Assembly: GCA_015143295.1 (NCBI GenBank)
Contig: CM026563.1
Location: 6,806,531 to 6,870,530 of the forward strand
DNA from: Tetracentron sinense
Lineage: Eukaryota > Streptophyta > Magnoliopsida > Trochodendrales > Trochodendraceae
DNA: 64,000 nt
Direction: 5' to 3'
Shown: in pieces, positions 1 to 39,450 of the stretch
Position numbering within the stretch: the stretch's first letter is position 1
How the letters are laid out: each line of letters opens with the position of its first letter
Made by a program: the position numbers and the translations under genes
Notes under the pieces: generated by a model
Databases searched by the model: none
What the model was told of the DNA's origin: nothing
The model's input: the letters and a program-made list of their open reading frames with translations, nothing else

Positions 1-78
1 CAACCCAATCTGAGATATTTCAAATATCTCTCATAAAGTTTATTTAATGCAGGTATATAAAAAAGTTAAAATTCAGCC

Positions 79-1020
79 TATATATGAAGCTTATCCCTTG
101 AATAACCCTTCATCTATCCATATCATTTTTTTCTTCATTTGCTTGATTTGCTCGACTTTTGTGCTTTTCTTTTTCTGATGAACCTATGGGTTGCTATAGG
201 GTATTTCCTTAGTCAACCTCACGAATCCAATCACTAGGTATTTTACAAAATGGGTACAACCAGCCGAAGTCTTGTGTTATGGTTCTATTTATATAATCAG
301 AATAGACTCAGCCAATGATCAATTCAAGAGTTGTTTCACCCCTTTTAACCATTCAAACTCTTCTCCCTCGGAGTTTCTTTTTCCTTTCTCTTTCCAGTTT
401 AAATACAATGCGAGCTATGCTTGAAGGGTTGAATCCGAGCTCCCCTGTATAGTGTATGGAGGTGGTAATCTTGTAATTATGGAGAAAAAATGTTTTACAA
501 AACTACCTTTACCTCTATGCATAATTACAAAAGTGTCATCACCATACACTAAAAAGGGAACTCTAGTTTAATGCCCAGAGCTCCATCTCAAAATTAGTCT
601 CTTTTTTTGTAGTACTTCTCATATTTATTTCTTTTTCTTTTTCATAAAAAATGAAGGGAAACTTTTTCTTATCCTAGTTTATTTTATTTTCAATTTTTAT
701 TTGCTAATTTACGGATCCGATTTGTAGGTGTACATGACTACAATAACCTTCGCTCTCAATGGATTCCAACCATGGGCTCTAATGAGAAGAGTCAATTATC
801 TCCCTACCGGCTAAGGTTGTTCTCTTTTCCTTGTTCACATTATGCACCCTGTTACATGTAACTTTTTTTGTTGGTTAAATGTTACATGTACTTCAAGAAC
901 TAAGTAGAGTAGAAAAGGGACTATTAATAACGCAAAACAAACAAATAAAAAAACATCAACTAACTTTGAAATTATTGATGCAGGTGTACGCAAGAAGTTC
1001 AAATCCCACGGTGGAAATAA
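79..1020 (+). pseudogene. Array unit A: TATA block and three mini-exons of an unknown short gene, decayed
   Basis: This is the first visible copy of a unit repeated on the same strand through the left 39 kb. A TATA-like block (TATATATGAA, 79-88) is followed by three exon-like blocks at about 178-237, 728-815 and 984-1020. The second block is bounded by a TTGTAG acceptor and an AG|GTTG donor and is 88 nt long, exactly as in copies B, C and D. The third block begins after GATGCAG and ends at TAA (1018-1020), giving a C-terminus QEVQIPRWK. In the frame linking the exons (phases 1 and 2), exon 2 is open and contains YNNLRSQWIPT, but exon 1 has an in-frame TAG at 210-212. I do not recognise the product. 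The copy is probably no longer coding, or is a non-coding transcript unit. The window edge cuts off its upstream part. Confidence 0.45.
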
Positions 1021-1080
1021 GAAATTCCACGGAAGATCTCCTTGCCAAGATTACTAAGATACTATGATGAGGACGAGTAG

Positions 1081-1654
1081 GGGTAATTAGGGGCGGAGCC
1101 AAGGGGCAAGGGAGGTAGCTGTCCCCGAACTGTTGAAGAATTAATCTCTATAACCTATAGATTCATGACAAGTTGAAATAAAATGGTTGTGATTTCTCGT
1201 TTTGGTTTCCATATCCTTAGAAGATCATATATACAATAGAAGAAATTTCAGCCAACCCTCAGATCACCAAAGGAGAAAATTCTAATATAACTCAAATGGG
1301 TAGCTAACATTAGCTCAATTCACTCTTGCTTCAACCAAGTCCATGCAGCCAAATAGCCTTCGCATAATTGAAGCAAAGGGTATGGTTTTCATTCCTGAAG
1401 TACCCGTTTGGTCAGTGTTAATAGCTCGTTCATCTATTATTGATCAGCTTATTGCATTAACAAACTACGAAACATCCGGAAGCAAATCGCCTGTGCTCTT
1501 CCTTCCCGTGGCCATGAGTTTTTAAAGGCTGGGATCAAATTGGCTGTACGGATTTAACAACTTTAAACAACTGTAAAAGAGATTCTGGCCTTCAAACACT
1601 ACGGCCACAGGGAAGAAAACAAAGGATTTTGTTTTGAAATATTCACCTACATCC
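1081..1654. other. Gene-free spacer with a hAT-end fragment
   Basis: No gene is supported here. Around 1090-1130 there is a stretch resembling the GGGGCGGAGCC end of the hAT-type elements at 2504-3446 and 61,621-62,185, but I found no matching second end. The short open frame at 1343-1525 has no recognisable features. Confidence 0.4.
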
Positions 1655-2142
1655 ACATGGGAACCATATCCTCCCTGTGGCCAGAGTGTTTAAAGGTTGA
1701 GTTCATTTGGCTTTTACGGATTTAACAGCTGTAGACTTCACTGTGACCAAGGAGTTTAAAGGCTGAGATCACTTGTTTAAACACCCTGGCCACAGTGAAG
1801 TCTACAGCTAAATCCGTACAAGCCAATTGATCTCACTCCTGACCAGTGTTGTCAGAACCGGACCGGGCATTGAACTAGTAGAGTGGCCATTCCCAGTTCC
1901 ACCGGTCCAGTTCAACCGTGTACTTTTTGCCCAAAAAAAAAAACATTTTTTGTTCATTTTTTCCTAAGTTTTCCCCGGGTCTGACCGGTTCTAGCTGGTT
2001 CTTAAATAATACTAGATTTGAGGGTTTTGGGAACCGTCGAGAGGGCCGGTTCCCGGTTCCACTGGCCGGTCCGGTCCTGTTCTGATAACAGTGCCCCTGA
2101 CCACAGTGAAGGCCACAGGGAACAACACATGATATGGTTCCA
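1655..2142. repeat. Palindromic MITE, split by a later hAT MITE
   Basis: GGGAACCATATCCTCCCTGT near 1659 is matched in inverse near 2110-2142 (CACAGGGAACA then ATATGGTTCC). The inner arms repeat GTGGCC, CAGAGTGTTTAAAGG and the inverse of GACTTCACTGTG. A fragment of the same family lies at about 52,100-52,180. The element is interrupted by the 250-bp hAT MITE at 1844-2093, so it is the older of the two. Confidence 0.55.
1844..2093. mobile_element. Non-autonomous hAT MITE, 250 bp
   Basis: The ends are CAGTGTTGTCAGAACCGGAC and its near inverse, finishing GTTCTGATAACAGTG. The flanks are CTCCTGAC (1836-1843) and CCCCTGAC (2094-2101), a 7-of-8 match to an 8-bp target duplication as expected for hAT. 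The interior is rich in CCGGTCC/GGACCGG self-complementary blocks and has no transposase. Confidence 0.75.
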
Positions 2143-2503
2143 TAAGCATGCAACTGCACGCCTTCCCAATCCATATGATTGCTCAACACTGAATTCTAAT
2201 AGAAGGAACAGAAACACACAAATGCCCTTCTCTACAAAAGGAAAAATGAAAGAACTAAAACGGAAGCCGTGAAACATCCATGCATGCTGACATGCTGTAA
2301 ATGCTCGCATGAAGGAAATCTTCAAAGTTGATCTCCTGGTTCATGTTAGAACACGATTCCCCCAAGATCTAGGAGACAACCAAACAACCACTAAGATCCC
2401 AGTCGTTGGTGTGCCCTCTAGAAGCCTGAGTAGGTATAGCATGGTCCTATATGTCTTCTCAGGTACCAGCATAATCCTCCTTGACCATTGTGATCCCTAC
2501 GCA
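2143..2503. other. Gene-free spacer
   Basis: No gene, RNA gene or repeat boundary could be supported in this stretch. The open frames over it are short and without motifs. Confidence 0.35.
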
Positions 2504-3446
2504 CAGGAGTGGAGCCATGATTTTATTGTAGGGGGCACACAATGATTAATTGAATGTGTCATTTTGGTGAATTTGTGGAAAATAATTACACGGGTACAAA
2601 ATATTTAGGTAGGGGATTGAGGGGTTTGGGATGTAGTCCCCGATTTTTTTTTGACAACTAGATTTGTAGGTCATTTCGTCTACGGGTTTTGTTTCTCATT
2701 AGTTACGGGTATCTATCCTCATACCCTATGACTACCCCCTATTAAATAATTAAACAATATAGTAGAAAATATATATTTTGTTTTCAACAGTGTAGGGCCC
2801 CTTGCCGAATGGCTATGCCGTATTAAATAATATAACATATGTTTTCAAAAGTTTAGTAGGGGTAATTGTCAATCTTGTCAATGACTATGTTCTATTAAAT
2901 AATTAACGACATTGTATAAAAGATATATATATTTTTTATAAGGTCAAGGAGATTGGATTATAGTTCATTGAGATTGAACCTTCCCCAAGTTCAATCACAC
3001 CCAAAAGTCAACACGTGTCTCTTTTAACTCTTATTAATTGTGGTTAAGAGTCACTAATCCTTGAGGTTCAACAATATAACCTTTATTTTTTATAAATTAT
3101 ATAAAAAAGCACTTAACATTGACTAAGAATTTTTAACCCTTAGGGTTATTTTTTTTAAAAAAATTCTTCAAAAAACCAAGGTTATAGTGTTGAACTCCAA
3201 AGGTTAATGAATCTTAATCACAATTAATAGGGATTAAAAGAGACATATGTTGAAGTGTGGCAGTTGCTCCATGCCCCCATTGCTCAACTATAAATTTTTT
3301 ATTGTATTTTATTCAAAAGTTTAAGGGGGGCACTTAGCCTCAAGCCCCAAATATTAGAATTTAAAATTTTTTAAGAAAAACCCTTATTTTTCAAAAGTTG
3401 AGGGAGGGACAGGAGTGCCCCCCCTAGGCATCTGGCTTTACCCCTA
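2504..3446. mobile_element. Old hAT-type non-autonomous element with a nested MITE
   Basis: The left end CAGGAGTGGAGCC pairs with a right end GGCTTTACCCCTA, whose inverse is TAGGGGTAAAGCC. The flanks CCTACGCA (2496-2503) and CCTGCATA (3447-3454) agree at five of eight positions, the mismatches being transitions, which fits an aged 8-bp duplication. The interior repeats phrases such as GGGGGCAC, TGCCCC and TTCAAAAGTT, also present in the better-preserved relative at 61,621-62,185. No transposase is visible. Confidence 0.55.
2940..3260. repeat. Palindromic AT-rich MITE nested in the hAT element
   Basis: The left arm (ACACGTGTCTCTTTTAACTC, then TTAATTGTGGTTAAGA) is matched in inverse by the right arm (CTTAATCACAATTAATAGGG, then TTAAAAGAGACA). 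The centre is T/A rich. This is one member of a family with copies at about 33.54-33.70, 46.99-47.36 kb and elsewhere, sharing the AGGTTCAAC and GTGGTTAAGA motifs. Confidence 0.55.
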
Positions 3447-3636
3447 CCTGCATAAATCTTAAACGGGATACCCCAGAATATATCAATTAAATAAGGGTAA
3501 ATTACACGACTTCCCCTGATGTTTGGTGAAAATTCAGAAGTCTCCCCTCTTGTTTATGAAATTACGCTGACCTCCCTAGTCAAGCTCGTCAAGTTAACAC
3601 CGTTAACAATAATATTCTTTTACAATTTTACACGTT

Positions 3637-5552
3637 GTTACGGCTTGGTTTGAAAGCTCAATCAAAGAAAAACATAAACGTCCCAAACATTCAGTGGGAA
3701 CATAACAGAGAAAATGATAATTTTTCTAGGGTTTTTAGAAAAATAACTAAATAATACTAATCTGAGGTTAATTATGCTTAACCATGGTTAAAGGGGCTCT
3801 ACAAACCGCCCCGTGTCCCAATAACGCCAACCATAACTATGGTTAAGATTCACTCATGCCTAGGGTTCATTCATCTAACCTTGGTTTTTAGAAACAAAAT
3901 AACCTTAGGTTGATTATTGTCTAACCACAATTAAAGAAGGCTCTACAAGCTGCTACATGTCCCTTTTAGCACCTACTAACTGTGGTTAAGATTCACTCAC
4001 CCCTAGGATTCATCCATCTAACCTTGGTTTTAAGAAATAAAAGTATTAACCTTAGGTTATTTATATAAGTCGCCATGTGTCCCTTTTAATACCCACTAAC
4101 TTTAATATATAATACCTTAAGACTTATAATAACTTAAGAAGTTAAGCTTTACTTTGTGTATGTTTAAATACTGACACTCTAGTATAGTATCTTAATAATA
4201 TAGTAAATGTAATGTTTTTCTTTCTTTTTGGAAAAATATGCTAATACATACTATCATACAATGTGTATGTGTAACAAATTAATAGTGTTGTTTATTTTCA
4301 AAATGTTTTAATGTTACTACTTGTAAGTTGTACCCTTTTTTATTTTATAATATAATGATACTAATACTAATACTAATAATTTAACTAGCGGTACCAATTG
4401 GGGGTGAACTAATACTAATAATCTAGGTACTTAAACTCTGTTGTATTGCTCTTTGAGTGGCATCGTTCATCACCGACCCAAATGATGAAGAAAGGTTGTA
4501 TATCAAGTTGACAATCAACGTAGAAAAAGTTGCTAAAACATGATATATTTTTTTGGAAAATGCTAGTGAGATCGCAAAGGGCCGAGACCACACCGAGACC
4601 GTGCAAGTGATACACGGACCTCAAATTTTCAAAAACAGATTTAATGAAATTTTGAGATCCATGCATCACAAGCACAGTCTTGGTGTGGTCTCGGCCCTTC
4701 GTGGTCTCAGTAGCAAAGTTATATATTTTTATTATCATTCTTTCGGCCCTGGCCCTTGAGGGCTCCATTACTTGAGGAAATACTTTACGGCTTGGTTTGA
4801 AAGCTCATTCAAAGAAAAACATAAATGTCTCAAACATTCAACGGAAACATAACAGAGAAAATGATAAATTCTCTAGGGTTTTAGAAAAATAACTAAAAAA
4901 ATACTAATCTTAGGTTAATTATGCTTAACCATGGTTAAAGGGGCTCTACAAGCTGCCTCATGTCCCTACAACGCCAACCATAACTATGGTTAAGATTCAC
5001 TCACGCCTAGGGTTCATCGATCTAACCTTGGTTTTTAGAAACAAAAAAATCTTAGGTTGATTATGTCTAACCACAATTAAAGAAAGCTCTACAAGCCACC
5101 ACATGTCCCTTTTAGCACCCACAAACTGTGGTTAAGATTCACTCCTATAGATTCACTCACCCCTAGGATTCATCCATCTAACCTTGGTTTTAAGAAATAA
5201 AAATATTAACCTTAGGTTAATTATATAAGCCGCCATGTGTCCCTTTTACTACCCACTAACTTTAATATATAATACCTTAAGACTTATAATAAGTTAAGAA
5301 GCTAAGCTTTACTTTGTCTATGTTTAAATACTAACACTGTAGTATATATCTTTCTAATATAGTTAATGTAATGTATATCTTTCTTTTTGGAGAAATATCT
5401 AATAGAGGCTAATACATACTATCATACTATGTGTATGTGTAACAAATTAATAGTGTCGTATATTTTCAAAATATTTTAATGTTACTACTTATAAGTTGTA
5501 CCCTTTTTTTCTTTTGTAATATAATGATACTAATACTAATAATTTAATTAGC
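3637..5552. repeat. Direct duplication of a MITE-rich block, about 1.15 kb apart
   Basis: The block starting ACGGCTTGGTTTGAAAGCTC at about 3640 recurs at about 4787 in the same order. Both copies run through an AACCATGGTTAAAGGGGCTC arm, CTAACCTTGGTTTT, and a closing AATGATACTAATACTAATA tract at about 4355 and 5523. Each copy contains palindromic MITE arms (CCATAACTATGGTTAAGATT). No gene is present. A third partial copy of the following spacer lies at 7078-7222. Confidence 0.6.
4553..4720. mobile_element. MITE with long terminal inverted repeats (GGGCCGAGACCAC family)
   Basis: TGCTAGTGAGATCGCAAAGG then GCCGAGACCACAC is matched at the other end by the inverse of GTGTGGTCTCGGCCCTTCGT then GGTCTCAGTAGCA, with few mismatches over about 33 bp. 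The flanks share ATATATTTT (4543-4551 and 4721-4729). The paralogous spacer at 7190-7222 lacks the insert, so the empty site is known. Relatives lie at 33,708-33,745 (fragment) and 54,107-54,228. Confidence 0.75.
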
Positions 5553-5557
5553 GGTAC

Positions 5558-6804
5558 TGATCTATTAAGATTATTACCCCGTTACTACACTAAATTTAAA
5601 GAATAGTAGCAAGTATAGAGGGTGTCGACCCACGAAGATTGTGTTGGTTATATTGCTTAATTTCAAGGATGAATAATTTTAATTTGAAAGGCGAACAAAT
5701 GGGTTTTGGTTTAAAAGTCCTAAAATTATCCTAAAATTCAAAATCAATTAAAAGTGATTAGGAATCTGGAGAAAGAAGTATAGGGTATTGAATTCACCGC
5801 TTGCCTCCTAACTTTGATTAACTATATTCAATTCAAGATTATTATTTGTAATTGATTTTAAGTAATTGAACTACAAGTCTCAATTAGATTCTTTCAAAAA
5901 ATCAAGTATAAGAATCCTAGTTATATATGATCTATCTTTGGTTGGCACGGATCGTCTACATTATATTAAGTAACCTAAGGTTATAGTAATGATCCATCTT
6001 TCCGTAGGTATAGATCATCTTAGAATTCTCATACTTGTATATTAAACACCATTACATGACATCTATAAATAAAATCACAGAAATTAATTATGGATTGAAT
6101 CTCAATCAAATCAAAGTTAATTCCTAAGACAAGGAAAGCTTTATTAAGATTGAAGATTGAACAATAGAATCGATTGTCTAAGAAATCCTCGAGTAATGCA
6201 ATTTCTATTACAAATAATGAAACCCTAGAAATAAATATAGAAAATATAACGTTACTCAGCTAGGGTTTCATCAAAACCCTAGATAGAAGCTTAGTTGCTC
6301 ATGGTGGATGGAGTGACTGCCATTAACGATGAAGACTCCATGATCTTCATGCTTCACTCCCAATGAGTTTTCCTCTCCAATTCCGAATCCTAGGTAAGGC
6401 CTTAGGGTCTTCTATTTATAGGCTTCCAAAAATCGCATTAGGGTTCAATTTCCCAAGTCGTACACGCATCCCGAGGTGTCAAAATCAGATAACCGATCGA
6501 TCGGAGGAGTAAGTATCGATTGATCGGACCCTACTAGAATTGGCTGATCGATCGGTCTGGTGGGTCCAATCAATCGGTCTGCTTTGGTCTTCACTCCCTA
6601 AGTCCTTTTTGGCTTGTTTTACTTGTTTAAGACCCTTCCAGCTTCCTCACTTGGAGTAAATCTTCAAGTTTATTCCCTTTTGCTCTCAAATACCTGAAAT
6701 ACAAGAATCATACCAAGTGAAGCATAATAGGAACAAAAAGAATATTTAAATACATAACAAGTCTAGTTTTGAGATATGCAATTGTGCACAATTACGCCCA
6801 ATCA
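5558..6804. mobile_element. Probable solo LTR (fossil), 1.25 kb
   Basis: The segment starts TGATCTATTAAG and ends GCCCAATCA, so it has TG...CA termini. It splits a target that is intact in the duplicated copy at about 4387-4405 (GCGGTACCAATTGGGGG); the flanks GGTAC and AGTAA fit an aged 5-bp duplication. It has no open reading frame of note and contains a run of CGATCGATCGG-like motifs near 6490-6580. Its family is not recognised with certainty. Confidence 0.45.
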
Positions 6805-7369
6805 AGTAACAATTGGGGGTGTCAAAGTTGTCATGCCAGAATGGTGTCTGCACAAGCCCTATAATGAGCTACGAAACTAGAGTAGGGGTGATAATTTCTT
6901 ATCCAACCACATGTTACGCTTAAGATATTTGAATGCAGTGAGTTTTTTTTTAATTATTTCAAGATCTATGGCTAGGCCGCAACCATGGGTAGTAACGTTA
7001 GTATCTGTTCTAGTTCAGCAGATGGGTGCATCACACCTCTCGTTCCTTGATCCGGATCAATCGAGTGGTGGCATACTAATACTAATAATCTAGGTACTTA
7101 AACTTCGTTGTATTGCTCTTTGAGTGGCATTGTTCATCACTCAAATAAAGGAGAAAGTTTGTATATCAAGTTGACAATCAACGTAGAAACATTTGCTAAA
7201 ACATGATATAATTTTATTATCATCTTTCGGCCCTGTCCCTTGAGGGTAAGGCTTGGGCCTAGACAGTTTAAGCCCTCTGAGGGCTAGGGCCTCACTCCGA
7301 TGAATGAGGGTCGGGCCTAATAAGACCTAGGCCCTGTCCTAATCCTGCCCTTTGACAGCCCTACTTGTT
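6805..7369. other. Gene-free spacer with repeat fragments
   Basis: 7078-7222 repeats the spacer at 4406-4550 without the MITE found there. 7225-7370 is a fragment of a GGGCC-rich hAT-like MITE ending TTGACAGCCCTAC. The open frame at 6911-7093 shows no motifs. No gene is supported. Confidence 0.45.
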
Positions 7370-7413
7370 GTGCATGTGATAAGGAGTGGCGATGGATGGG
7401 ATGGGTTGTGTCG

Positions 7414-7893
7414 TAGGGCTATCAATGGATCAGATCAGGATCCGGATCTGATCCGATTAGCTGGACTTTGGACCCTATATGTGATCTGTCGGATCGAATT
7501 CGGATCAGATCGGTAGAATCTGATTATAATCAGATCGGATATGGATATAGGGTGATCTGATCTGATTAAAATCCGATCCGATTATAATAAATTTTTTTAA
7601 ATCATTTTAATATATTAAATAGATTTTCTATACATATAAAGTATATTTTAAAAAAATTAACATTAATTAGAGTTAATTAAGGTACTATTATATTTTTATA
7701 TTATTAAAATAGAGTTTTTTTTTTAATTAACCTTAATCGGATCGGATTCGGATCTTAAAAATATAATCGGATTCGGATTGATTAATTCATGATCCATAGG
7801 ATCTGGGATCGGATTCTGATCTGTCGGATTCTTAATCAAATCGGATTTGAATCTAGGCAGTTCCGATCCGAATCCGACCCATTGACAGCCCTA
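7414..7893. mobile_element. hAT-type MITE, 480 bp, rich in GGATCGGAT motifs
   Basis: The ends are TAGGGCTATCAATGG and the inverse of CCCATTGACAGCCCTA. The flanks TTGTGTCG (7406-7413) and CTATGTCG (7894-7901) match at six of eight positions. The paralogous site in unit C near 12,330 (TGTTGTCGGGTCAATTTGG) lacks the insert. The interior alternates GATCGGAT and ATCCGATC blocks, so the transcript could fold on itself. It is non-coding. Confidence 0.75.
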
Positions 7894-9674
7894 CTATGTC
7901 GGGTCAGTTTGGGGTTTATAATATCTTTGGAACAAACCAAATTTAAAATGGGTTAAAAGAAGTCAAATCCGAGCTCAATCTAATAAGTTCCTTTTAAGCC
8001 CGACCACCTAATCCAATATAATAGATAACTAATATCAATTAATTCTAGTTTACAGCAGAGTTTAACTATGAACAGGATAGTTGGTTCAAAATATACTAGA
8101 GATTGATCATTACATGCGTAATTTCTTGGAAAAGTGCTACCCCACTCTCTCCTGTTTGAGGCAAGAAGACAAAGATTTTGTGTCCTTACTTGTAGTTTCC
8201 ACTACAAAAATCCTTACTATTTTTGCTCCAAAAGGAAAGAATGCAATATAGAGAGAGAGGGCTAACAAAATTCTTGCAAAGTATTTTGAAAATATTTAAA
8301 TATGATGTGGAGTCCCAGAAAAGATTGTTATGTGCGATGTGGAAAATAAAAGATTTCCAAAGCTCCCATTTTGAGTGTAAATTGTGACAATTTTGTAATT
8401 GTTGGGGGAAAAAATCTTTGTAAATATGTAAATATGATAATAATTACAAAAATGTCATCCTGTTGGACCTGTTCACATTAAAAATGACATGGATATCTTT
8501 TTTCTCCGAGCTTGCATCATATGAAAACTATCATTTTGGGAAATAATCTTTAATTTGTGTATTTACCAAAACACTTCAGTGGTTAGTGGGCTTCTCCGAA
8601 TATCTTTTGAATCAGAGCTCCTATTCATAGTTAAATTATTTGCACTATTTTTGCTTGTCCCATTGATGTGTGTGCATAAGCACCACATGTTAGGTCCGGG
8701 ATATAATCATGTGAGGGTGTGTATGGTTAATTTCTTCACCCTTAGGAACATATACTAACCCTACTAACTAACGAGTTAAATAAATAAATACATAATAACA
8801 TTTAAACTCGAAGTTAGCATTTAATATTTAATAAATTGTTTATTTGCATCCATGCACATTCATGCACTGGCATGTATAAAGCAAGATTTGAAATCTCAAA
8901 AATTTTGGTCCCTCCATCGAAACTGAAATTTTGAATAACTCAACGAAATTTAAGATAAATTATTTTTAAAATATTTATTGGAACAAAATATCTACATAAT
9001 TAGATAATTTTATTATTTTACATAAATATCATTATTTTAGTTTTAAAAATATTTTTTCAGAAATTTCACTAAATATATCGTAAATTTCAAATATTGTTGA
9101 AAATATCAATATTTTATTAAACATTTATTGAAAATTATTTAAAATAAATATACAAACTTCGAATGAAGCCATGCAACCCAAGATCATAGTCATTTCAGTT
9201 TTGGAGGAGGGAACGAGGCCGAAATTTCACCATATGGATCCAAAATTTCAAGCCATGGTACAAAGAGCCATCAAAATATCTTTGATGATGATACTATAGT
9301 GATGTAATGAAGTTGTATACATGATAGCTAGACACTCATGTATTGTAAGTCGTATCATATATCAAATTATATTATCCCTTCTAAATTAAATCAAAAGCCG
9401 AGCAACTCAGTATGTATAAACAAGCATTCCCTCTTTGTGTCATTTATAGAAAGAACAATCTAAATATAGCAAAAGGGTGACATAAATAGCAAATACAATT
9501 GAAAATCCATTTCATTTCAGGTTGCAACATTCAATGAAAATGATTCTCATAATCCTCAATTGTTATATTATTTAATTCCATATATGCACTCACCAACCCA
9601 ATGAGAGATCTTTCAAAATTTCTCTCATAAAGTTATTACTTAAAGCGGGTGAACTTAAACTCTAGAGCTCAGCC

Positions 9675-10448
9675 TATATATGATTATATATTATAGGAAG
9701 CATGGCCCTTGAATATAACTTCATGTCTCCATGTATTCCTTTTTTTCATTTGCTTCAGTTTTTTAAATGTTAGTTCGTATGTTGCTGCCAAGCTGATGCA
9801 CAGACTCGCTTGTTAGAAGATAATTAAAGAGTGGAAGAATTAACTGAGCTTTTCAGATGAACCCGTGGGTTGCCTCAGGGCGTTTCCCTGATCAATCGGG
9901 CAGGTTGAATAACCAGGTATTTTACAAAACAGAAATGAGTACAACCATAACTAGCCGATTTTTGAATTTTTTTTTTTTTTTTTGAGGGAGAGTTATCTAG
10001 GAAAGAGAATGAAAATTGTTTTTAGTAGCTTGTTTTTTTCAGTTTTTGTTTACTAATTAATAAATCCTTATTTTGCAGTTGCATATGGCTACAATAACCT
10101 TCCCTCTCAATGGATACCCACCATCGCCTATAATGAAGAGATTCATCTCTCTTCCTATCGTCTAAGGTTTTTCTCTTTTTCTTGTTGACATTACACGCCG
10201 TTAGTGAGTACTTCTTTTAGCAATTTTTAAATTAATATTAATCTCTCTTTTCTAAATTTCTTATTGTGGTATTTCTAGTTCCTAGAATCTTTAATTATCA
10301 TGATAGGTTACATGTACTTCAAGAACTAATAGAGTAGAAATTAAGGGGACTATAAATACCGTAAATCAAATAAAAGAAAAGCAACAACTAACTTAGAAAT
10401 TAATGATGCAGGTGCAATCAAGGAGTTCAAATCCCACGGTGGAAATAA
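9675..10448 (+). pseudogene. Array unit B gene-like region: TATA block and three mini-exons
   Basis: TATATATGA at 9675-9683 precedes exon-like blocks 9857-9916 (60 nt), 10,079-10,166 (88 nt) and 10,412-10,448 (37 nt). The acceptors are TTTTCAG, TTTTGCAG and GATGCAG; the donors are CCAG|GTATTT and CTAAG|GTTTTT. In the linking frame, exon 2 reads through GYNNLPSQWIPT and exon 3 ends VQIPRWK and TAA, but exon 1 has a TGA where copy C has TGG. Read from the ATG at the start of exon 1 in another frame, the chain is open until a TAA at the exon 2 donor, so the true frame is not certain. The product is unknown. Confidence 0.45.
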
Positions 10449-10524
10449 TATATTCCGTGGAAGATCTCCGTGCCATGATTACTAGAGATAATATGAAGCG
10501 ACCGAGTGGGAATAATATCCAGGT

Positions 10525-11009: not shown

Positions 11010-11420
11010 TCTACTTTCTTTTTACAATTTATTTGATGACATATGTAGCATTCGATGAAAATGATTTCATCCTTGCTGTTTACTGTTTTCATAATATATA
11101 TGCAACCACCTTAGTAATTATGAATCAGTTAGGTTGTTAGGGGTTAGTGTTGGGCAGGGGAGTTCTTGTAACTCATACCCGAGAGGATTCGATCCCTACA
11201 CTTCCCACCCTAGGAGGCCACACCCCCAACCACTGGCGCAAGACAGCCGGGTGTAGGTGAGGTCTTTCAAAAAGGTTTATTTAGAGCAAGTGAAAAGAAT
11301 TATTTAGAGAAGAACTAAATGTAAAAAGTGCAGCTTATATATGAAGCATCACCCTTGAACATGTCTACATGAATAATTGTGTGATCTTTTTTTTACTCTT
11401 CGGTTGTCTTTCCTAAATTT
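11010..11420 (+). repeat. Array unit B2: promoter block only
   Basis: This partial copy carries the GCATTCGATGAAAATGATTT segment, the GGTCTTTCAAAAAGG segment and a TATATATGAAGC block (about 11,336-11,347) in the array order. A SINE at 11,135-11,262 has been inserted between the first two. No mini-exons follow it. Confidence 0.55.
11135..11262 (-). mobile_element. tRNA-derived SINE, minus strand
   Basis: On the minus strand it shows a box-A-like TTGCGCCAGTGGTTGGG followed by a box-B-like GGATCGAATCC about 45 bp later, the spacing of an RNA polymerase III promoter. It is a different family from the SINE at 10,839-11,003. The exact ends were not resolved. Confidence 0.55.
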
Positions 11421-24478: not shown

Positions 24479-24479
24479 C

Positions 24480-25813: not shown

Positions 25814-26104
25814 GTTGCCCCTCTTTGTTGGAGAGTGCTAGCAATTGAACGACAAAGACTGAAGAAACCGTCATTTTTACACACCTAAAACTTGTGAAGA
25901 CTTGTGAAAATCTAAGATAAGAAAAGAGAAAGCCTAGCTAAACTTGCCAAAAACAAAAAGATGGGGTGAAGGATAGTTTATAGCCTCATTACGGAGGACT
26001 GCTGGGGAAAATGGGTGTGCATGGACCATGGATTGACGGATTGCTGGGGAAAATGAATGTAAGTGACACATGGATTGAAGGGGGCTCGAAAACAATATGA
26101 TTAA

Positions 26105-27750: not shown

Positions 27751-28326
27751 TACTCCCTTCATTGCCTTGAATGCCGGTGTTCTACCTCGGATACTATTCT
27801 GATGACTGCTTGTACTCTTAGTCTCTAAGGGATCTAGGAGGACTTGAGATGGGACGAAACGTTGGCTGAGGGGACTGAAATTTGGGACTTCCTTTCTGCT
27901 TACCAGAATTCTGTCTTTTCTTTAAACACCTCTTGATTGATTTTTTTTTTTCTCTTTCAATCAACCTTTCTATTCCCTTTTTTTTTCTTTTTTTTGTTGG
28001 ATTTTTTTTTGTTTTTTTTTTTGTTTTTTCTTTTGAATTAGAGCTGCTTTGTCCAAATGGTTTGAAAATTTTGACCGCACCTGATTTCCAGGTTGCCTAC
28101 GTACCTTTTTCAGGATCAGGTCATGACGTAGTTCATAGCAGACTAAGTGCAGGGTGTCCCGGTAAAAGGTTTTTGAAAAAGAGGTTACTAGGCTCAAAGG
28201 GCTAACTAACGAACTTTATTGATATATTGTAGGTGTTACATGATTTATAGGGAGAGCAGGCACCAAATACGGCCTCCTATCATTTCCCAAAGAAGCTAAG
28301 AGTACAAGCAGTTATCAGATAGAATC

Positions 28327-29796: not shown

Positions 29797-29865
29797 CTTT
29801 TCTTCCTTGATTGCCCATGACTCATTAGCTTGACAAATTACCAGTGATGAATCACCATAAACAAA

Positions 29866-30675
29866 ACCATAGCCTCTTTTGGTTTAAGGCCGCTCGATCC
29901 GCCCTGCTCTTTGCCTTTAAGATAATTAAAATCATTTATACTTTATTTTCCTTTTGCCTACCTTGGGCACTTAGGATAGCCTTGACTAGTTAAAACTTGC
30001 CAAAATTAAAATACAAAAAAATCAAAAAATACAAAATAACAAAAACATTCAAAAAAAAAATCTAAAATGAAAAAGAAATCTACCCTAATAAATGAACGCC
30101 CCCTAGAGCTCCCCCACGAGCACCTAGCTACGCGACCATCTCCCAGAATGAGATTCATAAATCTCAATTCCACTTCCCCTCCCCCAACTCAAACACGAGT
30201 TGGAAGTGACCACACTCCGAAACGAGTATAAAAACAGTCACGGACCCCGAACTACTATTGAGGGTCTGATTCCGACTAACCGGATAAGTAGGCAGCCCAA
30301 TCAGGGTTCGACCCCAACCAAAAATAAACTTTTTTTTTACCCCCCGTTCTGATTTGTATTCGATTAGCAAAATTAATAATTATTTAGGAAATGTTAAGTG
30401 ATTTTTAAATGTTTGATTTGGACCTAATGAGTAGGTTACCATCATTGGATGGAGGTCCTGGGGTGCCTAACCCCTTCCCCAGGACCTAAAGGGATCCCTT
30501 ACCTAGACTATTTTGGACCGTAGACCCCCCTCATTTGGATTATTTCGGGATCCTACTTCCCCTAAGTAGGTGGCGACTCATAAAAATAAGTTTAGCGTCA
30601 TTCCTCTACTCTCGGACCTTATTCCGATACCTAGAGTTGAGAGGGGAGGAAAGGCGGTAAATTTTGGCGTTTACA
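29866..30675 (+). repeat. LTR portion of the Ogre/Tat element, direct orientation, 3' end
   Basis: It is essentially identical to about 14,718-15,527 and ends GGCGTTTACA before the second TCAAG. By eye no difference was found over about 800 bp, which supports a recent insertion. Confidence 0.9.
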
Positions 30676-31001
30676 TCAAGCATTGTCGTATCATAAACCA
30701 AATAATATTATCCCTTCTAAACAAAACCAAGTAAACCGATACTTATAAACAAGCATCCCCTCATGCATTGTGCCATTCATTGAAAGAACAATCTAAATAT
30801 AGTTAAAGGGTGACATATATATAGCAAATACAGATGAAGATCCATTTCAGGTTGCAATATTCATTGAAAATGATTATCAAAATCCTGAGTTTTTATTGTT
30901 TAATTTCATATATGCAATCACCAACCTAAGGAGAGATCTTTCAAATATTCCTTATAAAGTTATTGTTTAAAGTTGGTGAACTTAAACGCTAATGCCCAGC
31001 C

Positions 31002-31617
31002 TATATATGAATAACCTTCCGTATATCTCTCCATGTAGTCCTTTTTTTTTTATTTGCTTCAGTTTTTTTAATGTAAGTTGGTATGTTGCTACCAAGCTGA
31101 TGCAGGGACTCGCTTGTTAAAAGATAATTGAGTGGATGAAATAACTGAGTTTTTAGATGATTTTGTGGGTTGCCTCAAGGTGTTTCCCTGGTCAACCGGA
31201 CGAATTGAATCACCAGGTATTTTACAAAATGGGCTCAACAGGATGAAGTTTTTTTTTTGGGAAAAAAAGAAGAAAAATGTTATTTCTTTTCAGTTTTTGT
31301 ATACTTATAACTAAATTCTTGATTTGCAGGTGTACATGGCTACAATAATCTTCCCTCTCAATGGATACCCACTGTAGCCCATAATGAAGTGAGCCATCTC
31401 TCTCCCAGCCGTCGAAGGTCTTTCTCTTGTCCTTGTCCATATTATGCACCCTTGGTAACTGCATCCTGATCTGTTACATGTACTTCAAGAACCAAATAGA
31501 GTAGAAAATGGATTATAAATACCATAAATCAAATGAAAGAAAAGGCGCGCCACAACTAACTTTAGAAATTATCGATGCAGGTGTACACAAGAAGTTCAAA
31601 TCCCACGGTGGAAATAA
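31002..31617 (+). CDS. Array unit C: unknown short multi-exon gene, the only copy open in all three mini-exons
   Basis: TATATATGA at 31,002-31,010 is followed by a GTAAGT donor-like site near 31,073, suggesting a short first exon. Mini-exons lie at 31,157-31,216 (60 nt), 31,330-31,417 (88 nt) and 31,581-31,617 (37 nt). The acceptors are TTTTTAG, TTTGCAG and GATGCAG; the donors are CCAG|GTATTT and CGAAG|GTCTTT. With phases 1 and 2 the chain is open. It contains GCLKVFPWSTGRIESPG, then GYNNLPSQWIPT, and ends QEVQIPRWK and TAA, about 61 codons without a start. No start codon is certain; the ATG near 31,033 is followed directly by TAG. I do not recognise the family. A non-coding RNA is an equally fair reading. 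Confidence 0.4.
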
Positions 31618-31649
31618 AATGTTCCGTGGAAGATCTTACTCAAGATACT

Positions 31650-33450
31650 AGAGAGTGGATGAGTTCTGGGACTCAAGGAAAAATGTGATCTCCAGGCACT
31701 GAAGGGGGGCTCAAAACTGACATGGAAGGAGGCATGTAGTCATGGCTCATTGCAAGCATGAAACCCGCAGAAGCACTGCCCTAGACAGCGGCTATTATTT
31801 AGGGCAGTAAAATATGAAATCTTCGAGGAAATAGACATAGCCCCTTAGTTTGAGAGATTTTGGCCCAAGCAAGATCCTAGGCAAAGGATAAAAATGTTAA
31901 TGGGTTTATCTAACCTTGTAGCCTCTTCTCTTCTAATGTGACGCTATTATATGGGCCAATATTGTTCTTTTAAGCACGGCATTCTGGGAAGGGAAAATGA
32001 GGACAAGAAATGTAATTTTTTTTCATTTTTTTATTTTTCAATATTTTTCGAGATAGTGAAGCCAATTAATTAGGCCCAAAAACTCAATTTTTGCCAGAAC
32101 TAGAGCATTCATAAGAGAGGTGAGGTGGGAGTACTTGAAGGAGAAGGCCCCTACAGTCGTTAAGTGAGGTGGGATAAATGGGCTAACAGCTCGTAAGAAA
32201 GCAAACACACCACACTGTTTTTGTCTTTTTTTGATATTTTTGAACTAACTAAACACACTCAACACACACCCACAAGACACACACACACGCGCCCTACAAT
32301 CTCAACTTCAAGCCTATAACCACACACACCCCTCAAAAAAGAGGGGTGAGGTGGGAGTACTTGAAGGAGAAGGCCCCTACAGTCGTTAAGCGAGGTGTGT
32401 GTGGTTATAGGCTTGAAGTTGAGATTGTAGGGGGTGTGTGTGTCTTGTGGGTGTGTGTTGAGTGTGTTTAGTAACTTTAGTTAGTTCAAATATATCAAAA
32501 AAAGACAAAAACAGTGTGGTGTGTTTGCTCTCTTATGAGCTGTTAGCCCATTTATCCCACCTCGCTTAACGACTGTAGGGGCCTTCTCCTTCAAGTACTC
32601 CCACCTCACCCCTCTTTTTTTAGGGGTGTGTGTGGTTATAGGCTTGAAGTTGAGATTGTAGGGTGTGTCTGTGTGTCTTGTGGGTGTGTGTTGAGTGTGT
32701 TTAGTTAGTTCAAATATATCAAAAAAAGACAAAAACAGTGTGGTGTGTTTGCTCTCTTATGAGCTGTTAGCCCATTTATCCCACCTCGCTTAACGACTTT
32801 AGGGGCCTTCTCCTTCAAGTACTCCCACCTCACCCCTCTTTTTTGAGGGGTGTGTGTGGTTATAGGCTTGAAGTTGAGATTGTAGGGCGTGTGTGTGTGT
32901 CTTGTGGGTGTGTGTTGAGTGTGTTTGATTAGTTCAAATATATCAAAAAAAAAAGCATTCATAAACTTTGACCAATTGTTCTCACAAGGATCAAGTGAAA
33001 ACCCACTCAGACCTCATATAAGTATATAAATGTTGACAACCATCTCACAAGATACAAGTTATGTGAAGAGCTAATCTCTTTTTTTTTTTTGGTTAAGTGA
33101 AGAACTAATCTCATCAGATACATTTTCAGGTATGGTCAATGAACCAAGCTGCCTAAAAGAAGGCCAAAACTAAACATCAATCCGAGCTTGAGTTCGGATT
33201 GAAAGTTTAATTTAATTGAGTAAGATTATTAATTTCTGGTCAAAGCTAAAAGTCTTACCTATATGATAAATCATCATGCTAAGGATACAGAATCCATTAA
33301 TAATTTACGTTACCTGAAATATCACACCTTTATTCTTCAGTAACTTTTGTTACTTGCTTAACCTAACTAGTAACTACAGTTTCTGAATCCAGAATAAAAT
33401 CAGGAGGGTAAATAACACCAAGCAAACTGAACCTTTACATGAGATTGAAG
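31650..33450. repeat. Downstream block of array unit C, paralogous to 38,190-39,200
   Basis: Shared segments in order include TTCTTTTAAGCAC (31,965; 38,450), GTGAAAACCCACTCAGACCT (32,994; 38,640), AATGAACCAAGCTGCCTAAA (33,138; 38,754) and AACTAGTAACTACAGTTTCT (33,366; 39,112). The duplication therefore extends well past the mini-exons, to within about 250 bp of the stop codon of the zinc-knuckle gene. No gene is seen in it. Confidence 0.7.
32118..32950. repeat. Tandem array of a roughly 228-bp unit with an inverted first copy
   Basis: The block GTGGTTATAGGCTTGAAGTT starts at 32,401, 32,632 and 32,856 (periods 231 and 224), and its inverse lies at about 32,304-32,323. Other parts of the unit include GGGGCCTTCTCCTTCAAGTA and CCCATTTATCCCACCTCGC. 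One inverted unit plus an inverted partial unit precede three direct units. Two minus-strand frames of 83 and 85 codons follow the repeat and are probably incidental. The array is inserted in unit C; the paralogous place near 38,600 lacks it. Confidence 0.8.
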
Positions 33451-34184: not shown

Positions 34185-36450
34185 AGAAAATCTTGGCCCT
34201 ACTAAGGAGTGCTACCCCACTTTCCATTTTTGAGGCAACAAGACAGACATTTTGTGTCAGGCAGACATTTTGTGTCAGGCAGTTGTGGTTTCCACCACAA
34301 AATCCTTGTTTTCTTGAAAGAAAAAAAAAAAAAAGGAAGAGTGCAATAGGTACAGCGGTGCTAACGAAATCCGTACAAAGTATTTAGGAAGTGTTTAAAT
34401 ATGATGTGGAGCAAAAGATTGTTTATTTATGATGTTGAAAATAAAAAATTTAAAATGCCCTCATTTTGAGTGTAAATAGTTACAAAATTGCTTTTAAAAA
34501 TTGGAAAAAAAGTTTGTGAAAATGTAATTATGCTAAATAATTACGTAAATGAAACTATGTTCACATTAAAAATGATATGGATGTCTTTTTTTTTTCCTCC
34601 GAGCATCATATCTATCATTTTGGAATATAGAGTTTTTTATTTGTGTATTTCTTGAAACACCTTTGCCATTAGTGTCTTTTGGGGCAGCTCCGAATATCAA
34701 TCAGAGCTCCTATTCATAGTTAAATTCTTTGCATTATATTGACACTTAAACTTTAAACTTGACATTTAATATTTAATAAACAGTTTTTTTGCATAATGCA
34801 CCGTCATGTACAAAGCAAGGTTTGAAATCTCACAAATATCGGCAATTTCAGTTTCTCAATCGAAATCGAAATTTGGGAAAATTGTAATATTTTATTAAAA
34901 CAAAATATTTTTACTATATATGCCAATATTTCACGAATTTTCAAAGTTTTTGAAAAAATATATAATCTCATTATTATTTTACATAAATTTCATTATTTTA
35001 GTTGTCGAAATCAAATTTTGAATTTTCATGAAATTTCAATAAATATATCATAAATTTTGAATTTTTTTTTAAATATCGGTGTTTATTTAACAATAATTTA
35101 AAAATAAATATGTAAAAATTCCACTCAAAGTTCTGAAATTCTGAAATTTTATACAAATCCATCCTGAGATAATAGCCATTTCAGTTTTAGGGGGTGAACG
35201 AGTGCAAAATTGCACTATATAGATCCAAAATTTCAAACCTTGACGCAAAAAGCCATTGAATAACTTTAATGATGAGACTATAGTGATTTGATGAAGTGTG
35301 CATGATAGATACTCATGCATTGTAAGTCATGTCATAAACCAAACAATATTATTCCTTCTAAATCAAAACCGAGTAATTCAGTACTTATAAACAAACATCC
35401 CCTCAATGTTCCATTTATAGAAAGAATAATCTAAAAATAACAAAAGGGGTGACATATATAGCAAATACACCTGAAGATCCATTTCAGGTTGCAACATTCA
35501 ATGTAAATAATTCTCATAATCCTCAGTTGTTATTGTTTAATTCCATATATGCACTCACCAACCCAATGAGAGATCTTTCAAAAATTTCCCTAATAAAGTT
35601 ATTACTTAAAGCAGGTGAACTTAAACGCTAAAGCCAGCCTATATATGAAGCATGCCCTTCAATATCCCTTCATCTCTCCATGTATTCCTTTCTTCATTTG
35701 CTTCAGTTTTTTTTTAGCTACCAAGCTGGTGTAAAGATTCGCTTCTTAAAAGATAATGGAGGAGTGGTAAAAATAACTGAGCTTTCTATATGAACCTGCT
35801 TTAAGTAGCCTCAAGAGTGTTTTCTTGGTCAATCGGGTGGGTTGAATCACCAGGTATTTATTTTACAAAATGGACTCAACCAGCCGAATATATATATATA
35901 TTGAAAAGAGAGAAAATTTTGTTTTTAACAACTTATTTCTTTTCAGTTTATGTCAACAAATTAATAAATTCTTAATTTGCAGGTTTGCATGGCTACAATA
36001 ACCTTCCCTCTCAATGAATACCCACCATGGTCCATAATGAAGAGAGTCATCTCTCACACTACCGTCTAAGGTTTTTCTCTTTTCCTTGTCCGACATTATG
36101 TGACCTTTAGTAACTACTTCTAATAGCAATTTTTGTAGTAATATGAATCTTTGTTTTCTAGGTTTCTTATTGTGGTATTTATAGTTAATAGAAGATTTAA
36201 GTATCTTGAGCTTTACATGTACTTCAAAGAACCAAATAGAGTAGAAAATGGACTATAAATACCGCAAATCAAACAAACAAAAAGCAAGAATTAACTTTTA
36301 AGTTATTCATGCAGATGCAAGCAAGAAGTTCAAATCCCACGGTGGAAATAAGATATTCCGTGAAGTTCAAATCCCACAGTGGAAATAAGATATTCCGTGG
36401 AAGATCTTTCTGCCATGATTAATCAAGACGCTAGGAACTGGTCGAGTGGG
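34185..36450 (+). repeat. Array unit D
   Basis: This copy repeats the unit order from the ACATTTTGTGTCAGGCAG segment (here internally duplicated, 20-bp period, near 34,240-34,280) through the CAGGTTGCAACATTCAATG segment at 35,486 to the mini-exons. Confidence 0.65.
35640..36351 (+). pseudogene. Array unit D gene-like region, decayed
   Basis: TATATATGA at 35,640-35,648 precedes exon-like blocks at about 35,790-35,853, 35,983-36,070 (88 nt) and 36,315-36,351 (37 nt). Exon 2 keeps GYNNLPSQ but then has TGA at 36,015-36,017 where the other copies have TGG. Exon 1 is four bases longer than in B and C. Exon 3 still ends QEVQIPRWK and TAA. A partial copy of exon 3 and its flank is duplicated immediately downstream (36,361-36,401). 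The first acceptor is weak (TCTATATG). Confidence 0.45.
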
Positions 36451-36499
36451 GTGATATATAGGCATTCTTTACATGGATTAACCTGTGGGAGTGTACAAT

Positions 36500-36595
36500 G
36501 AAGACAGCAGAATGTAGGCAAAATAAGGGAGAATTCAACATCATATTGAAGACAGCCAAATGTAGACAAAATAAGGGAGAATTCAACATCATATT
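36500..36595 (+). repeat. 48-bp tandem duplication
   Basis: Units start at 36,500 and 36,548 (GAAGACAGCMRAATGTAGRC). Because 48 is a multiple of three, the frame over it (36,498-36,692) carries a 16-residue peptide twice (ECRQNKGEFNIILK-like). No other evidence of coding exists. Confidence 0.7.
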
Positions 36596-36861
36596 GAAAG
36601 TGATAATATTAACCCATGAAAATCAACTGGAGCAACTCAATACTTGTAAACAAACATTGCCTCAATATGCCATTTATAGAAAGAACAATTAAGTAGTAAA
36701 AGGGGTGGTATAAATAGAAAATACACCTGAAGATCCATTTCAGATTACAACATTCAATGAAATGATTCTCATAATCCTCTTTTTTCCATATGTGCATTCA
36801 CCAACCAGAGGATAGATCTTTCAGATATATCCCACATTAAGATATTACCTAAAGCTCAGTC

Positions 36862-37690
36862 TATATATGAAGCCTAGCTCTTGAAGTCTTGAACATACCT
36901 CCATATACTCTCTTTTTTTCTTTCTTTTTCTTGAATTCCTTATGCAAGTTGGTAATGTTGCTGCCAAGCTGATGCACAATCTTGTCAAGATATAAGAGGA
37001 AGTGAGAGAAAACTGAATTTTTCCGATTAACCTGTGGGTTGCCTCGGGATGTTTCCGTCAACTGGTCGAGTTGAATCACTAAGTGTGTTCCAAAATCACT
37101 ACAAAAATCATTCTCATAACCAGTTAAAATTTTGTGTTCCAGTTCTGGATTTTATGATTGGAATTGACTCGACCAATTGCCAATTTTGGATTGTTTGACC
37201 TCTTTCAACAATTCCAATCCATTCCCTCTTATTTTATAATACTTTCTCATTTTCATTTTAATGTTTTCTTAAAAAAGTGAAGGAAATGTTTATTTTCTAT
37301 AGCTTTTTTTTTTTCCTGTTTTTGTTTACTACTTAATAAATCCTTGATATGTAGGCGAGTATGGCTACAATAACCTTCCCTCTCAATGGATACTCACAGG
37401 GAAAGAATACAGTAATCTCTCTCTCTCACACACACATTTTTTTGGGTGAAATACAGGTTCCCCAGACACTGACTTGGTCATGACCGTATACATGCCTATA
37501 CACAAACCTCATACATTGGTGAACAGTTTTCTTGAGAGTTGAAAGTAACTAAATTCTCAAGCAAGAAACTATAACAAAAATACTCAGGTAAATCACCTAA
37601 AATTTTGAGAAACTAAAAAAAATAAGAAACTTAGTAGCTATTCATGCAGCCTTCTCTGTGCAGGTAGTTGAAATATCGCGGTGGAAGTGA
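36862..37690 (+). pseudogene. Array unit E gene-like region, most degraded
   Basis: TATATATGA at 36,862-36,870 is followed by a degenerate exon 1 near 37,026-37,085 (in-frame TAA early), an exon 2 start at 37,355 that keeps GYNNLPSQWI before diverging, and an exon 3-like block at 37,664-37,690 ending SRWK and TGA. The third block is ten bases shorter than in the other copies. The upstream part matches units B and D from about 36,610. Confidence 0.4.
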
Positions 37691-39450
37691 GTGGTCATTC
37701 CAATTAACGTCGTCAACTATAGTCTCATATTTCCGTCTGACGGTTTGTTCCACAATGAAGATCTCATCCTCTGAGTCACTGAATTGTAATCTCACACTTC
37801 CAAGGCATCGAGAAGGGGCTGAACCGCGTTAACACCTCTCCCCTCCATAAATCTCTTTCACTGTATTTGGTTAAGATTTCTAGTTTGTTAATTTTCGGTA
37901 AAATTCATAACTAGTTGTTCATAATCATATCTGTGTTTTCTTATGGGGGCTCAAACTGGCATTTGTTGTGAATTGGCATTTGTTGTGAATTGGACATTTC
38001 AAATGACAGGTGTGATTTAGTCATTATCTTTTATGTAGAACATAACATGATGAACGATCCAAAACTGAAGTTTTTTTTTTTTTTGGGCTAAGAAAAAAAA
38101 AACTGGAGTAAGTATTGTAGGAATTTATTAAATGTAAAGGAAGGAAATACCCTGTTAATTATGTTGAAGAAAATATGCATAAATCAAGCACCCACCTTGC
38201 AAGAGAGGAGAGGGGAGGTGGCTATATAGCACCTACCTTACCCAGATGCTACTAGACTCCAGATTTTCTCAGGATCCTCCAGGTTTATCACCATTCTGAC
38301 ATTTGTCCCAACAGTCTGTACAATTTTCTAAAACCCATGTTGGGTAAGATACTACAGAAAGCAGGTGCATCACATTGTTACCTTAATTCATGAAATGTTG
38401 CACACTATTGCCGGATGATGTGGTATTATTATATGGACCAATTATGGTTCTTTTAAGCACATCATTCTTGGAAGGGAATATGAATATAAGAGAAGTAATT
38501 TCATTTTTATTTTTTTATTTTTTATTTTCAATTTTTGTGGCGATAGGGAAGCAAATTAATTAGGCCCAAAACTCTACGTTTTGCCAAAGTAGACAGTAAA
38601 GCATCCATAGGTTTTGGCCCATGTTCTCAATAGGATGAAGTGAAAACCCACTCAGACCTCATTATAAATAGAATGTTAACAACCATCTCACCAGATACGT
38701 GTTATCTGAACTGGATGAGGAACCAATCTCATCAGATACATTTTCAGGTAGTCAATGAACCAAGCTGCCTAAAAGAAGGGCAAAACCTGCACGATAAGGA
38801 TCATCCAAGTTATTTTAAGTTTTGAGCTGAGAGGAATTGACTTGATATTGACTCTCTTTTTTATTTTATTTTGAGGCTCGATAATCAAATCCAGATTCTC
38901 AGATTTTTCAAACTAAACATCAATCTGAGGCCTGAGCTTGAGTTCAGATTGAAATTTTAATTCAATTGAGTAGGATTATTAATTTCTGGTCAAAGCTAAA
39001 AAAACCTACCTCTCATAAATCACCGTGCAAATGATAAAGAATCCTTTAATAATTTGAAATATCAAAAAAAAAAAAAAAATCTTTAATAACTTTCGTTAGT
39101 TGCTTAACCTAACTAGTAACTACAGTTTCTGAATCTGGTATAATATCAAAAGGGTAGATAATACCAATCAAATTGAACCTTTAAAACTAGAAACAAAATC
39201 TCATGTAGACATTGCCATCCAGAATACAAGACCACAAGCCTGATATAATGAAGAATAACAGTCAGTTATAAAAGAAGAGATTAATATGATCATTAAAGAG
39301 AGTGCCATATTAGTATCCAAATGCACTTCAAATTCTAAAGAAGAAATATCACTATCATTCATAATCGATCAAGCCAGGATAAAAATGTATTAAGACTCGG
39401 AAATACTTTCTATGAATTATCCCACTAACCAGCTACATCATCACCCCAAG

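What the first reader, a model, noticed from the sequence alone, without database searches (positions are those of the whole stretch)
1..39200. Same-strand tandem array of at least six TATA-driven gene-like units of unknown family
Six copies of a TATATATGA block (79, 9675, 11,336, 31,002, 35,640, 36,862) occur in one orientation. Five are followed by the same order of small exon-like blocks and shared flanking segments. The blocks keep acceptor and donor sites while the intervals between them vary (exon 1 to exon 2 gap 490, 162, 113, 129 bp in A-D). This is what duplicated genes with introns look like, yet I recognise no protein family. It could be a lineage-specific short secreted or signalling peptide family, or a long non-coding RNA family. 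Direct from sequence: order, sizes and sites. Inference: that they are genes.
Basis: partly seen in the sequence, partly recalled or inferred. Interest (0 to 1): 0.72.

Follow-up and report, generated by a model that had tools for sequence, protein, structure and literature searches.

The report
Tandem family of probably noncoding genes
A stretch of a plant chromosome carries five copies and one fragment of an old duplicated transcription unit that looks like a spliced gene but keeps no conserved protein; what it conserves best is one short stretch of exon 2 and pieces of its promoter, as a family of noncoding RNA genes, or of decaying gene fragments, would.

Summary
Five units (A-E, all +) align over about 1 kb; the sixth TATA site (11,336) is a promoter fragment. 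TATATATGA alone means little (13 in the window, 40,767 in the 1.16 Gb genome). The genome searches give at least 33 loci with exon 2, 20 of them within 5.4 Mb of this chromosome. A diverged copy lies on another chromosome beside a homologue of the zinc-knuckle gene that follows unit E, so the family predates a segmental or whole-genome duplication. Low copy number and variable ends argue against an ordinary transposon.

No reading frame shows purifying selection; 3 of 28 copies keep the 48-codon spliced frame; Pfam, NCBIfam and PDB gave nothing below E 0.1, Rfam nothing at its curated thresholds. The most conserved feature is a 24-base window in exon 2 (3.8% divergence against 22% on average), then promoter blocks, the TATA region and the exon 1 donor. 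3' ends differ between branches. Best reading: an old, locally amplified family of TATA-driven spliced noncoding transcripts. Main rival: decaying 5' fragments of a lost protein gene. Transcription could not be tested here.

The parts
1..1080 (+). Unit A: TATA 79-87, exon 1 to 237, intron 238-727, exon 2 728-815, exon 3 from 984; lies at the window edge
   Evidence: splice positions inferred from alignment, no transcript
9394..10520 (+). Unit B: TATA 9675-9683, exon 1 to 9916, intron 9917-10078, exon 2 10079-10166, exon 3 from 10412; the only unit in the window with the 48-codon spliced frame intact
11044..11393 (+). Promoter/TATA fragment (TATA 11336-11344) without exons
   Evidence: E 7e-14, profile positions 345-551 only; pairwise alignment with unit D
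30727..31660 (+). Unit C: TATA 31002-31010, exon 1 to 31216, intron 31217-31329, exon 2 31330-31417, exon 3 from 31581
35365..36450 (+). Unit D: TATA 35640-35648, exon 1 to 35853, intron 35854-35982, exon 2 35983-36070, exon 3 from 36315 with a 37-base internal duplication (36325-36399)
36624..37720 (+). Unit E: TATA 36862-36870, exon 1 to 37082, intron 37083-37354, exon 2 from 37355, diverged exon 3 near 37664; nearest to the zinc-knuckle gene, on a basal branch with the C7 copy
10087..10113 (+). Most conserved element (exon 2 block) in unit B; also at 736-762, 31338-31364, 35991-36017, 37363-37389
39371..41425 (-). Flanking zinc-knuckle (CCHC) gene, not part of the family; its homologue flanks the diverged copy on C12

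Best explanation
An old family of RNA polymerase II transcription units (TATA promoter, small exon 1, 88-base exon 2, variable 3' exons) that was amplified mainly by local duplication on one plant chromosome. Its products are most likely spliced noncoding RNAs. What is kept is the 5' module: promoter blocks, TATA region, splice sites and above all a 24-30 base element at the start of exon 2, which I infer acts at the RNA level, for example as a binding site for a small RNA or a protein. Shown: the family, its structure, its spread, its age relative to a duplication, the pattern of constraint, the lack of coding constraint. Inferred: that the units are transcribed and spliced, and what the exon 2 element does.
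For: Exon 2 window GGCTACAATAACCTTCCCTCTCAA has 3.8% mean divergence against 22.4% for all columns; the lowest window in 2000 column shuffles was 8.9% (30 copies). The next best windows are two promoter blocks, the TATA region and the exon 1 donor region, all 9.6-11.2%. Two otherwise eroded copies keep the 30-base block unchanged: C24 (37.5% divergent outside) and C7 (32.8%). Exon 1 donor GT is kept in 25 of 28 copies (26 counting D, where the alignment hides an intact GT) and the exon 2 acceptor AG in 26 of 28, against a mean of 68% for all consensus dinucleotides. Between the window and the homologous C12 region, the stretches found by a sensitive search outside the zinc-knuckle gene region are exon 2 of units D and E (77% over 87 and 73% over 94 bases). 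No frame shows purifying selection and 3 of 28 copies keep the spliced frame.
Against: No transcript evidence at all. The splice dinucleotides are above average but not exceptional (85th and 91st percentile of dinucleotides; exon 2 donor 22 of 26, 76th). Several copies are as divergent inside the 30-base block as outside: C13_5.925 4 of 30 against 12.5%, C13_7.590 3 of 29 against 10.0%, C11 4 of 30 against 15.1%. The shuffle test treats columns as independent. No conserved RNA structure in exon 1, exon 2 or the promoter; exon 3 weak, z -2.2. Rfam nothing at gathering score. No candidate partner small RNA found.
Confidence: 0.5

Rival explanations
1. The units are decaying copies of the 5' end (promoter and first exons) of a lost or much diverged protein-coding gene; the exon 2 block is a remnant of past constraint or of gene conversion, and most copies do nothing.
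For: Different 3' ends in different branches: exon 3 as in this window in at least 18 copies, another 3' part shared by C3 and C9 copies, a third shared by C12 and C7. Frameshifts and stops are frequent. In C12, exons 2 and 3 can be read in one open frame, and its last internal exon ends KSHLQ before an AAATAA exon, with 77 bases like the GARP exon of 12 of 12 sampled genes.
Against: Strong conservation of a noncoding-looking block and of promoter blocks in old copies. No frame is favoured by synonymous change. The GARP-like resemblance does not extend to the first 59 bases of the exon (z -0.4 to 1.6 in 12 comparisons), and C7 has no 77-base exon there.
Confidence: 0.33
2. A lineage-specific short-peptide family, reading MNLWVASGCFPGQPGG... 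from exon 1 into exon 2 (48 codons).
For: The exon 1 ATG is present in 25 of 28 copies and 3 of 28 copies keep the whole frame.
Against: Observed synonymous share is at or below expectation in every frame: exon 1 frame 0 0.257 against 0.250, exon 2 frame 0 0.169 against 0.253. 25 of 28 copies have lost the frame. No signal of a known family.
Confidence: 0.08
3. A non-autonomous transposable element of low copy number.
For: Single copies on several chromosomes (C4, C6, C7, C9, C11, C24).
Against: At least 33 exon 2 loci, 20 in one 5.4 Mb region; 5' ends of homology differ between copies and no common terminal repeat or target-site duplication was seen by eye; a conserved TATA promoter with splice sites.
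Confidence: 0.06

Closest known systems
Plant lincRNA families (PMC9673970, passages seen)
   Same: Intergenic, spliced-looking, fast-evolving sequence with short conserved parts; families of duplicated loci exist (that paper sorts plant lincRNAs into 18,937 families)
   Different: No transcript evidence here; a dense single-chromosome cluster with a strongly conserved 24-30 base exon element is more specific than that general picture
IPS1/At4 (miR399 target-mimic RNAs; recalled)
   Same: Works-like idea only: a noncoding transcript whose main conserved part is one motif of about 23 bases
   Different: The recalled miR399 motif is absent from the window at up to 3 mismatches, and no small RNA partner is known
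TAS3 trans-acting siRNA genes (recalled)
   Same: Noncoding transcript with a short conserved block
   Different: The recalled tasiARF sequence is absent from the window at up to 3 mismatches; no phased small RNA data
Pseudogene-derived lncRNA pGhFAD2-1 of cotton (PMC13194438, search listing and start of abstract only)
   Same: A plant lncRNA that grew out of a broken protein gene, studied across a polyploid genome
   Different: The parent gene is not identified here, and this is a multi-copy cluster

Membership tests
Long noncoding RNA gene family | No conserved reading frame | tested here: met
   no frame above expected synonymous share by more than 0.01; 3 of 28 keep the frame
Long noncoding RNA gene family | Transcribed and spliced | not testable with these tools
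   No RNA data; only TATA, donor and acceptor sites
Long noncoding RNA gene family | Constraint on promoter, splice sites or short exon elements | tested here: met
   splice sites only moderately above background
Known structured RNA family | Match to an Rfam model | tested here: not met
   0 matches at gathering score in the window; (unit B only, E up to 5): two chance-level matches on the - strand
Short secreted peptide family | Frame under purifying selection across copies | tested here: not met
IPS1/At4 target mimics | miR399-complementary motif (recalled letters) | tested here: not met
   0 matches up to 3 mismatches
TAS3 genes | tasiARF sequence (recalled letters) | tested here: not met
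   0 matches up to 3 mismatches
MIR gene | Exon 2 block and its complement close together as a hairpin | tested here: not met
   among 95 places within 3 mismatches of the 21-base core, no opposite-strand pair closer than 1 kb (read from the list); RNAalifold finds no exon 2 structure
Transposable element | Hundreds of dispersed copies with fixed ends | tested here: not met
   the counts are lower bounds because the genome search scores only the best candidates
GARP (MYB-CC) gene remnant | 77-base exon ending KSHLQ, with homology along the exon | tested here: inconclusive
   length and end agree in the C12 copy, first 59 bases not similar beyond chance; absent from the window copies

The most novel reading that the evidence does not exclude
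A new family of plant noncoding RNA genes, older than a segmental or whole-genome duplication, built around a new 24-30 base exon 2 element that serves as a shared binding site (small RNA target, decoy or trigger of phased small RNAs), with many tandem copies tuning dosage and 3' ends free to change.
Probability: 0.2. Interest if true: 0.7.

Novelty: new member of a known kind. Interest (0 to 1): 0.42.

Why it matters
If the units are transcribed, they would be an unusually clear natural experiment on what a noncoding gene family must keep: some thirty paralogues of different ages share a promoter, splice sites and one short exon element while everything else drifts. The exon 2 block then gives a precise, testable site for a partner molecule. 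If they are not transcribed, they show how promoter-plus-first-exon fragments spread and can be mistaken for genes by annotation pipelines.

Tried and rejected
Protein readings: consensus peptides of several frames against Pfam, NCBIfam and PDB sequences. Best values were RRS1 E 0.15, PDB 5lsb E 0.66 and 9kls E 1.6: treated as chance. An eIF4E-binding-like string (YSVEDLL) read in exon 3 was dropped because that frame is broken in many copies.

GARP origin: tested by comparing the C12 exon with 12 sampled GARP exons; left as a weak lead.

Small RNA partner: 21-base core with up to 3 mismatches, 95 places against 32 for the reversed control. Besides the family, the extra places are largely recurrent look-alikes (for example CAAAAACCTTCCCTCTCAATC, two of them in the inverted retroelement arms of this window); no hairpin-like pair.

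Conserved structure: four regions with RNAalifold and 100 shuffles each; only exon 3 is slightly below shuffles (z -2.2), not followed up.

Literature: six sequence strings in the paper library, 0 papers; searches for comparable families, 0, 1 and 79 papers (8 of the 79 listed).

Rows dropped: L011 and L024 (near-identical to L012 and L023) from all alignments; L010 and L017 (no homology upstream of exon 2) from the site, frame and tree counts but kept; L045 and L053 from the exon 3 alignment. The copy at C13:10939207 was found by pattern only and never aligned.
Full report
What the window is. The window is C13:6806531-6870530 of a 1.16 Gb genome in 1,479 contigs.

The observation. TATATATGA occurs 13 times in the window, 8 on + and 5 on -, and 40,767 times in the genome against 37,956 for the reversed control, so the block by itself is not telling. 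The units are. Five stretches align over about 1 kb and a profile (built from an alignment that includes them) finds these five and one promoter fragment at 11044-11393, all on +.

Copies elsewhere. Searches with exon 2, exon 3, the promoter and a 30-base pattern were merged. Exon 2 is matched in 32 clusters; units D and E fell into one, so 33 loci. Twenty are on C13 between 5.61 and 10.96 Mb; four on C3 (38.30-38.32 Mb); two on the 36-kb scaffold C1057; one each on C4, C6, C7, C9, C11, C12 and C24. One C1057 copy is 98.9% identical to the C13 6.44 Mb copy over 3.1 kb and may be an alternative version of it. A promoter match accompanies 30 of the 33 (28 clusters, plus the second copy of the D/E cluster, plus unit A, whose promoter lies 0.8 kb off). 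Exon 3 is matched in 18 copies (19 rows, D twice). These are lower bounds, since the tool scores only the best candidates.

Age and place of origin. The 30-base pattern with 3 mismatches led to C12:36761860. That locus (L078) has a TATA-like CCTATAAATGG, exon 1 and exon 2 counterparts, and a minus-strand zinc-knuckle gene downstream that is 82.5% identical over 629 bases to the one that follows unit E. In a sensitive comparison of window 35,000-47,800 with the 8-kb C12 region, matches fall in the zinc-knuckle gene region and in exon 2 of units D (77%, 87 bases) and E (73%, 94 bases). The family is thus older than the duplication that made the two regions; one shared gene cannot tell a segmental from a whole-genome event. 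In a tree of 28 copies (root by midpoint, C12 on a very long branch) E pairs with the C7 copy (support 85/77) outside two large groups; A belongs to one (8 rows, 100/100), B, C and D to the other (15 rows, 98/98). The window therefore holds members of three deep branches, which fits an origin near here, but the rooting is unsure.

What is conserved. In 30 copies (28 loci plus C12 and C6) mean divergence from consensus is 22.4%. The best 24-base window is GGCTACAATAACCTTCCCTCTCAA in exon 2 (3.8%); in 2000 shuffles of columns the lowest window was 8.9%. Next come two promoter blocks (9.6%, 11.1%), the TATA region (11.2%), the exon 1 donor region (11.2%) and a further promoter block (11.9%). Old copies on C24 and C7 keep the 30-base block unchanged while 37.5% and 32.8% of other columns differ; C12 and C6 differ at 3 of 30 against 44.3% and 32.0%. 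Against this, C13_5.925, C13_7.590 and C11 are about as divergent inside the block as outside, and C3_38.3187 differs at 5 of 30 (24.1% outside). The shuffle ignores correlation between columns, and two rows without upstream homology (L010, L017) raise the mean. Splice dinucleotides: donor 1 25 of 28 (26 with unit D), acceptor 2 26 of 28, donor 2 22 of 26, against a mean of 68% for all consensus dinucleotides: better than 85%, 91% and 76% of them, so conserved but not outstanding. TATATATGA is exact in 16 of 28 aligned copies, and 5 more start with it but carry an insertion.

Not a conserved protein. Synonymous shares against consensus, observed/expected, are 0.169/0.253, 0.248/0.279 and 0.216/0.238 for the three frames of exon 2 and 0.257/0.250, 0.282/0.298 and 0.184/0.281 for exon 1 (28 copies), and 0.150/0.241, 0.232/0.257 and 0.183/0.227 for exon 3 (17 copies). 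The 48-codon frame over exons 1 and 2 is intact in 3 of 28 copies, in the window only in unit B. Consensus readings found nothing below E 0.1 in Pfam, NCBIfam or PDB sequences. Rfam gave nothing at gathering score for the window.

Variable 3' ends. The window-type exon 3 is missing from the C3 and C9 copies, which share a different 3' stretch (78-86% over 500-600 bases in the C3 copies L023, L024 and L034; not in L031), and from C12 and C7, which share two short stretches (84% over 38 and 78% over 72 bases). In C12 that part reads ...GVVKSHLQ before AAATAA, in an exon of 77 bases, the length of the GARP exon in 12 of 12 sampled genes; but the first 59 bases are no more similar than shuffled ones (z -0.42 to 1.55). 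I keep this as a weak hint that a broken transcription-factor gene may lie at the root or have supplied a 3' end.

Mechanism. Shown: a promoter-like and splice-like module, duplicated, with constraint on short elements and none on a frame. Inferred: transcription from the TATA region, splicing of exon 1 to exon 2 and to varying 3' exons, and action of the exon 2 block as RNA. A search for a hairpin partner of the block was negative within its limits (95 places within 3 mismatches, no opposite-strand pair closer than 1 kb). RNAalifold gave no structure for exon 1, exon 2 or the promoter and a weak one for exon 3. The recalled miR399-mimic and tasiARF motifs are absent from the window at up to 3 mismatches.

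Literature. PMC9673970 (passages seen) reports thousands of plant lincRNAs, grouped in 18,937 families and mostly fast-evolving, and cites short conserved regions in animal lncRNAs; PMC13194438 (listing and start of abstract only) describes a cotton lncRNA derived from a pseudogene. Neither describes this family. Sequence strings of the family were found in none of the held papers.

Verdict.

Noticed in passing
13351-30163: Gypsy-type retroelement between units B and C with a plant-mobile-domain/DUF7745 frame, gag and RT/RNaseH frames on + but integrase and RNaseH on -, 1136-base arms inverted (99%) and a 300-base direct repeat (100%): internally rearranged. Described only.
   Followed up: partly
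26110-26749: Tandem array with units of about 41/80 bases around TGACAACACATTCCGATGTCAAACAG.
   Followed up: no
9780-9857 (unit B) and counterparts in C, D, E: Units B-E carry a leader segment of about 50-95 bases bounded in several copies by GTAAG... and ...TTTCAG just before the exon 1 ATG; unit A and the C3/C9 copies lack it. It could be an optional leader intron or an insertion (seen by eye).
   Followed up: no
L078 (C12:36758500-36766500): Diverged copy beside a duplicated zinc-knuckle gene; exons 2 and 3 can be joined in one open frame, and exon 1 opens with its own ATG frame, but the exon 1 donor seen in the family is lost.
   Followed up: partly
C13:5608685, 5663785, 5666882, 5923769, 7589194; C7:7691903; C21:22476347: Extra promoter fragments without exons; five on C13 lie upstream of complete copies, C7 lies 7.7 kb from one, C21 is alone.
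   Followed up: no
32113-32951: Dense cluster of 224-base tandem copies together with inverted partners.
   Followed up: no
56492-56953: Exon on + that matches the start of a class I (Met) tRNA synthetase model, E 6e-7.
   Followed up: no
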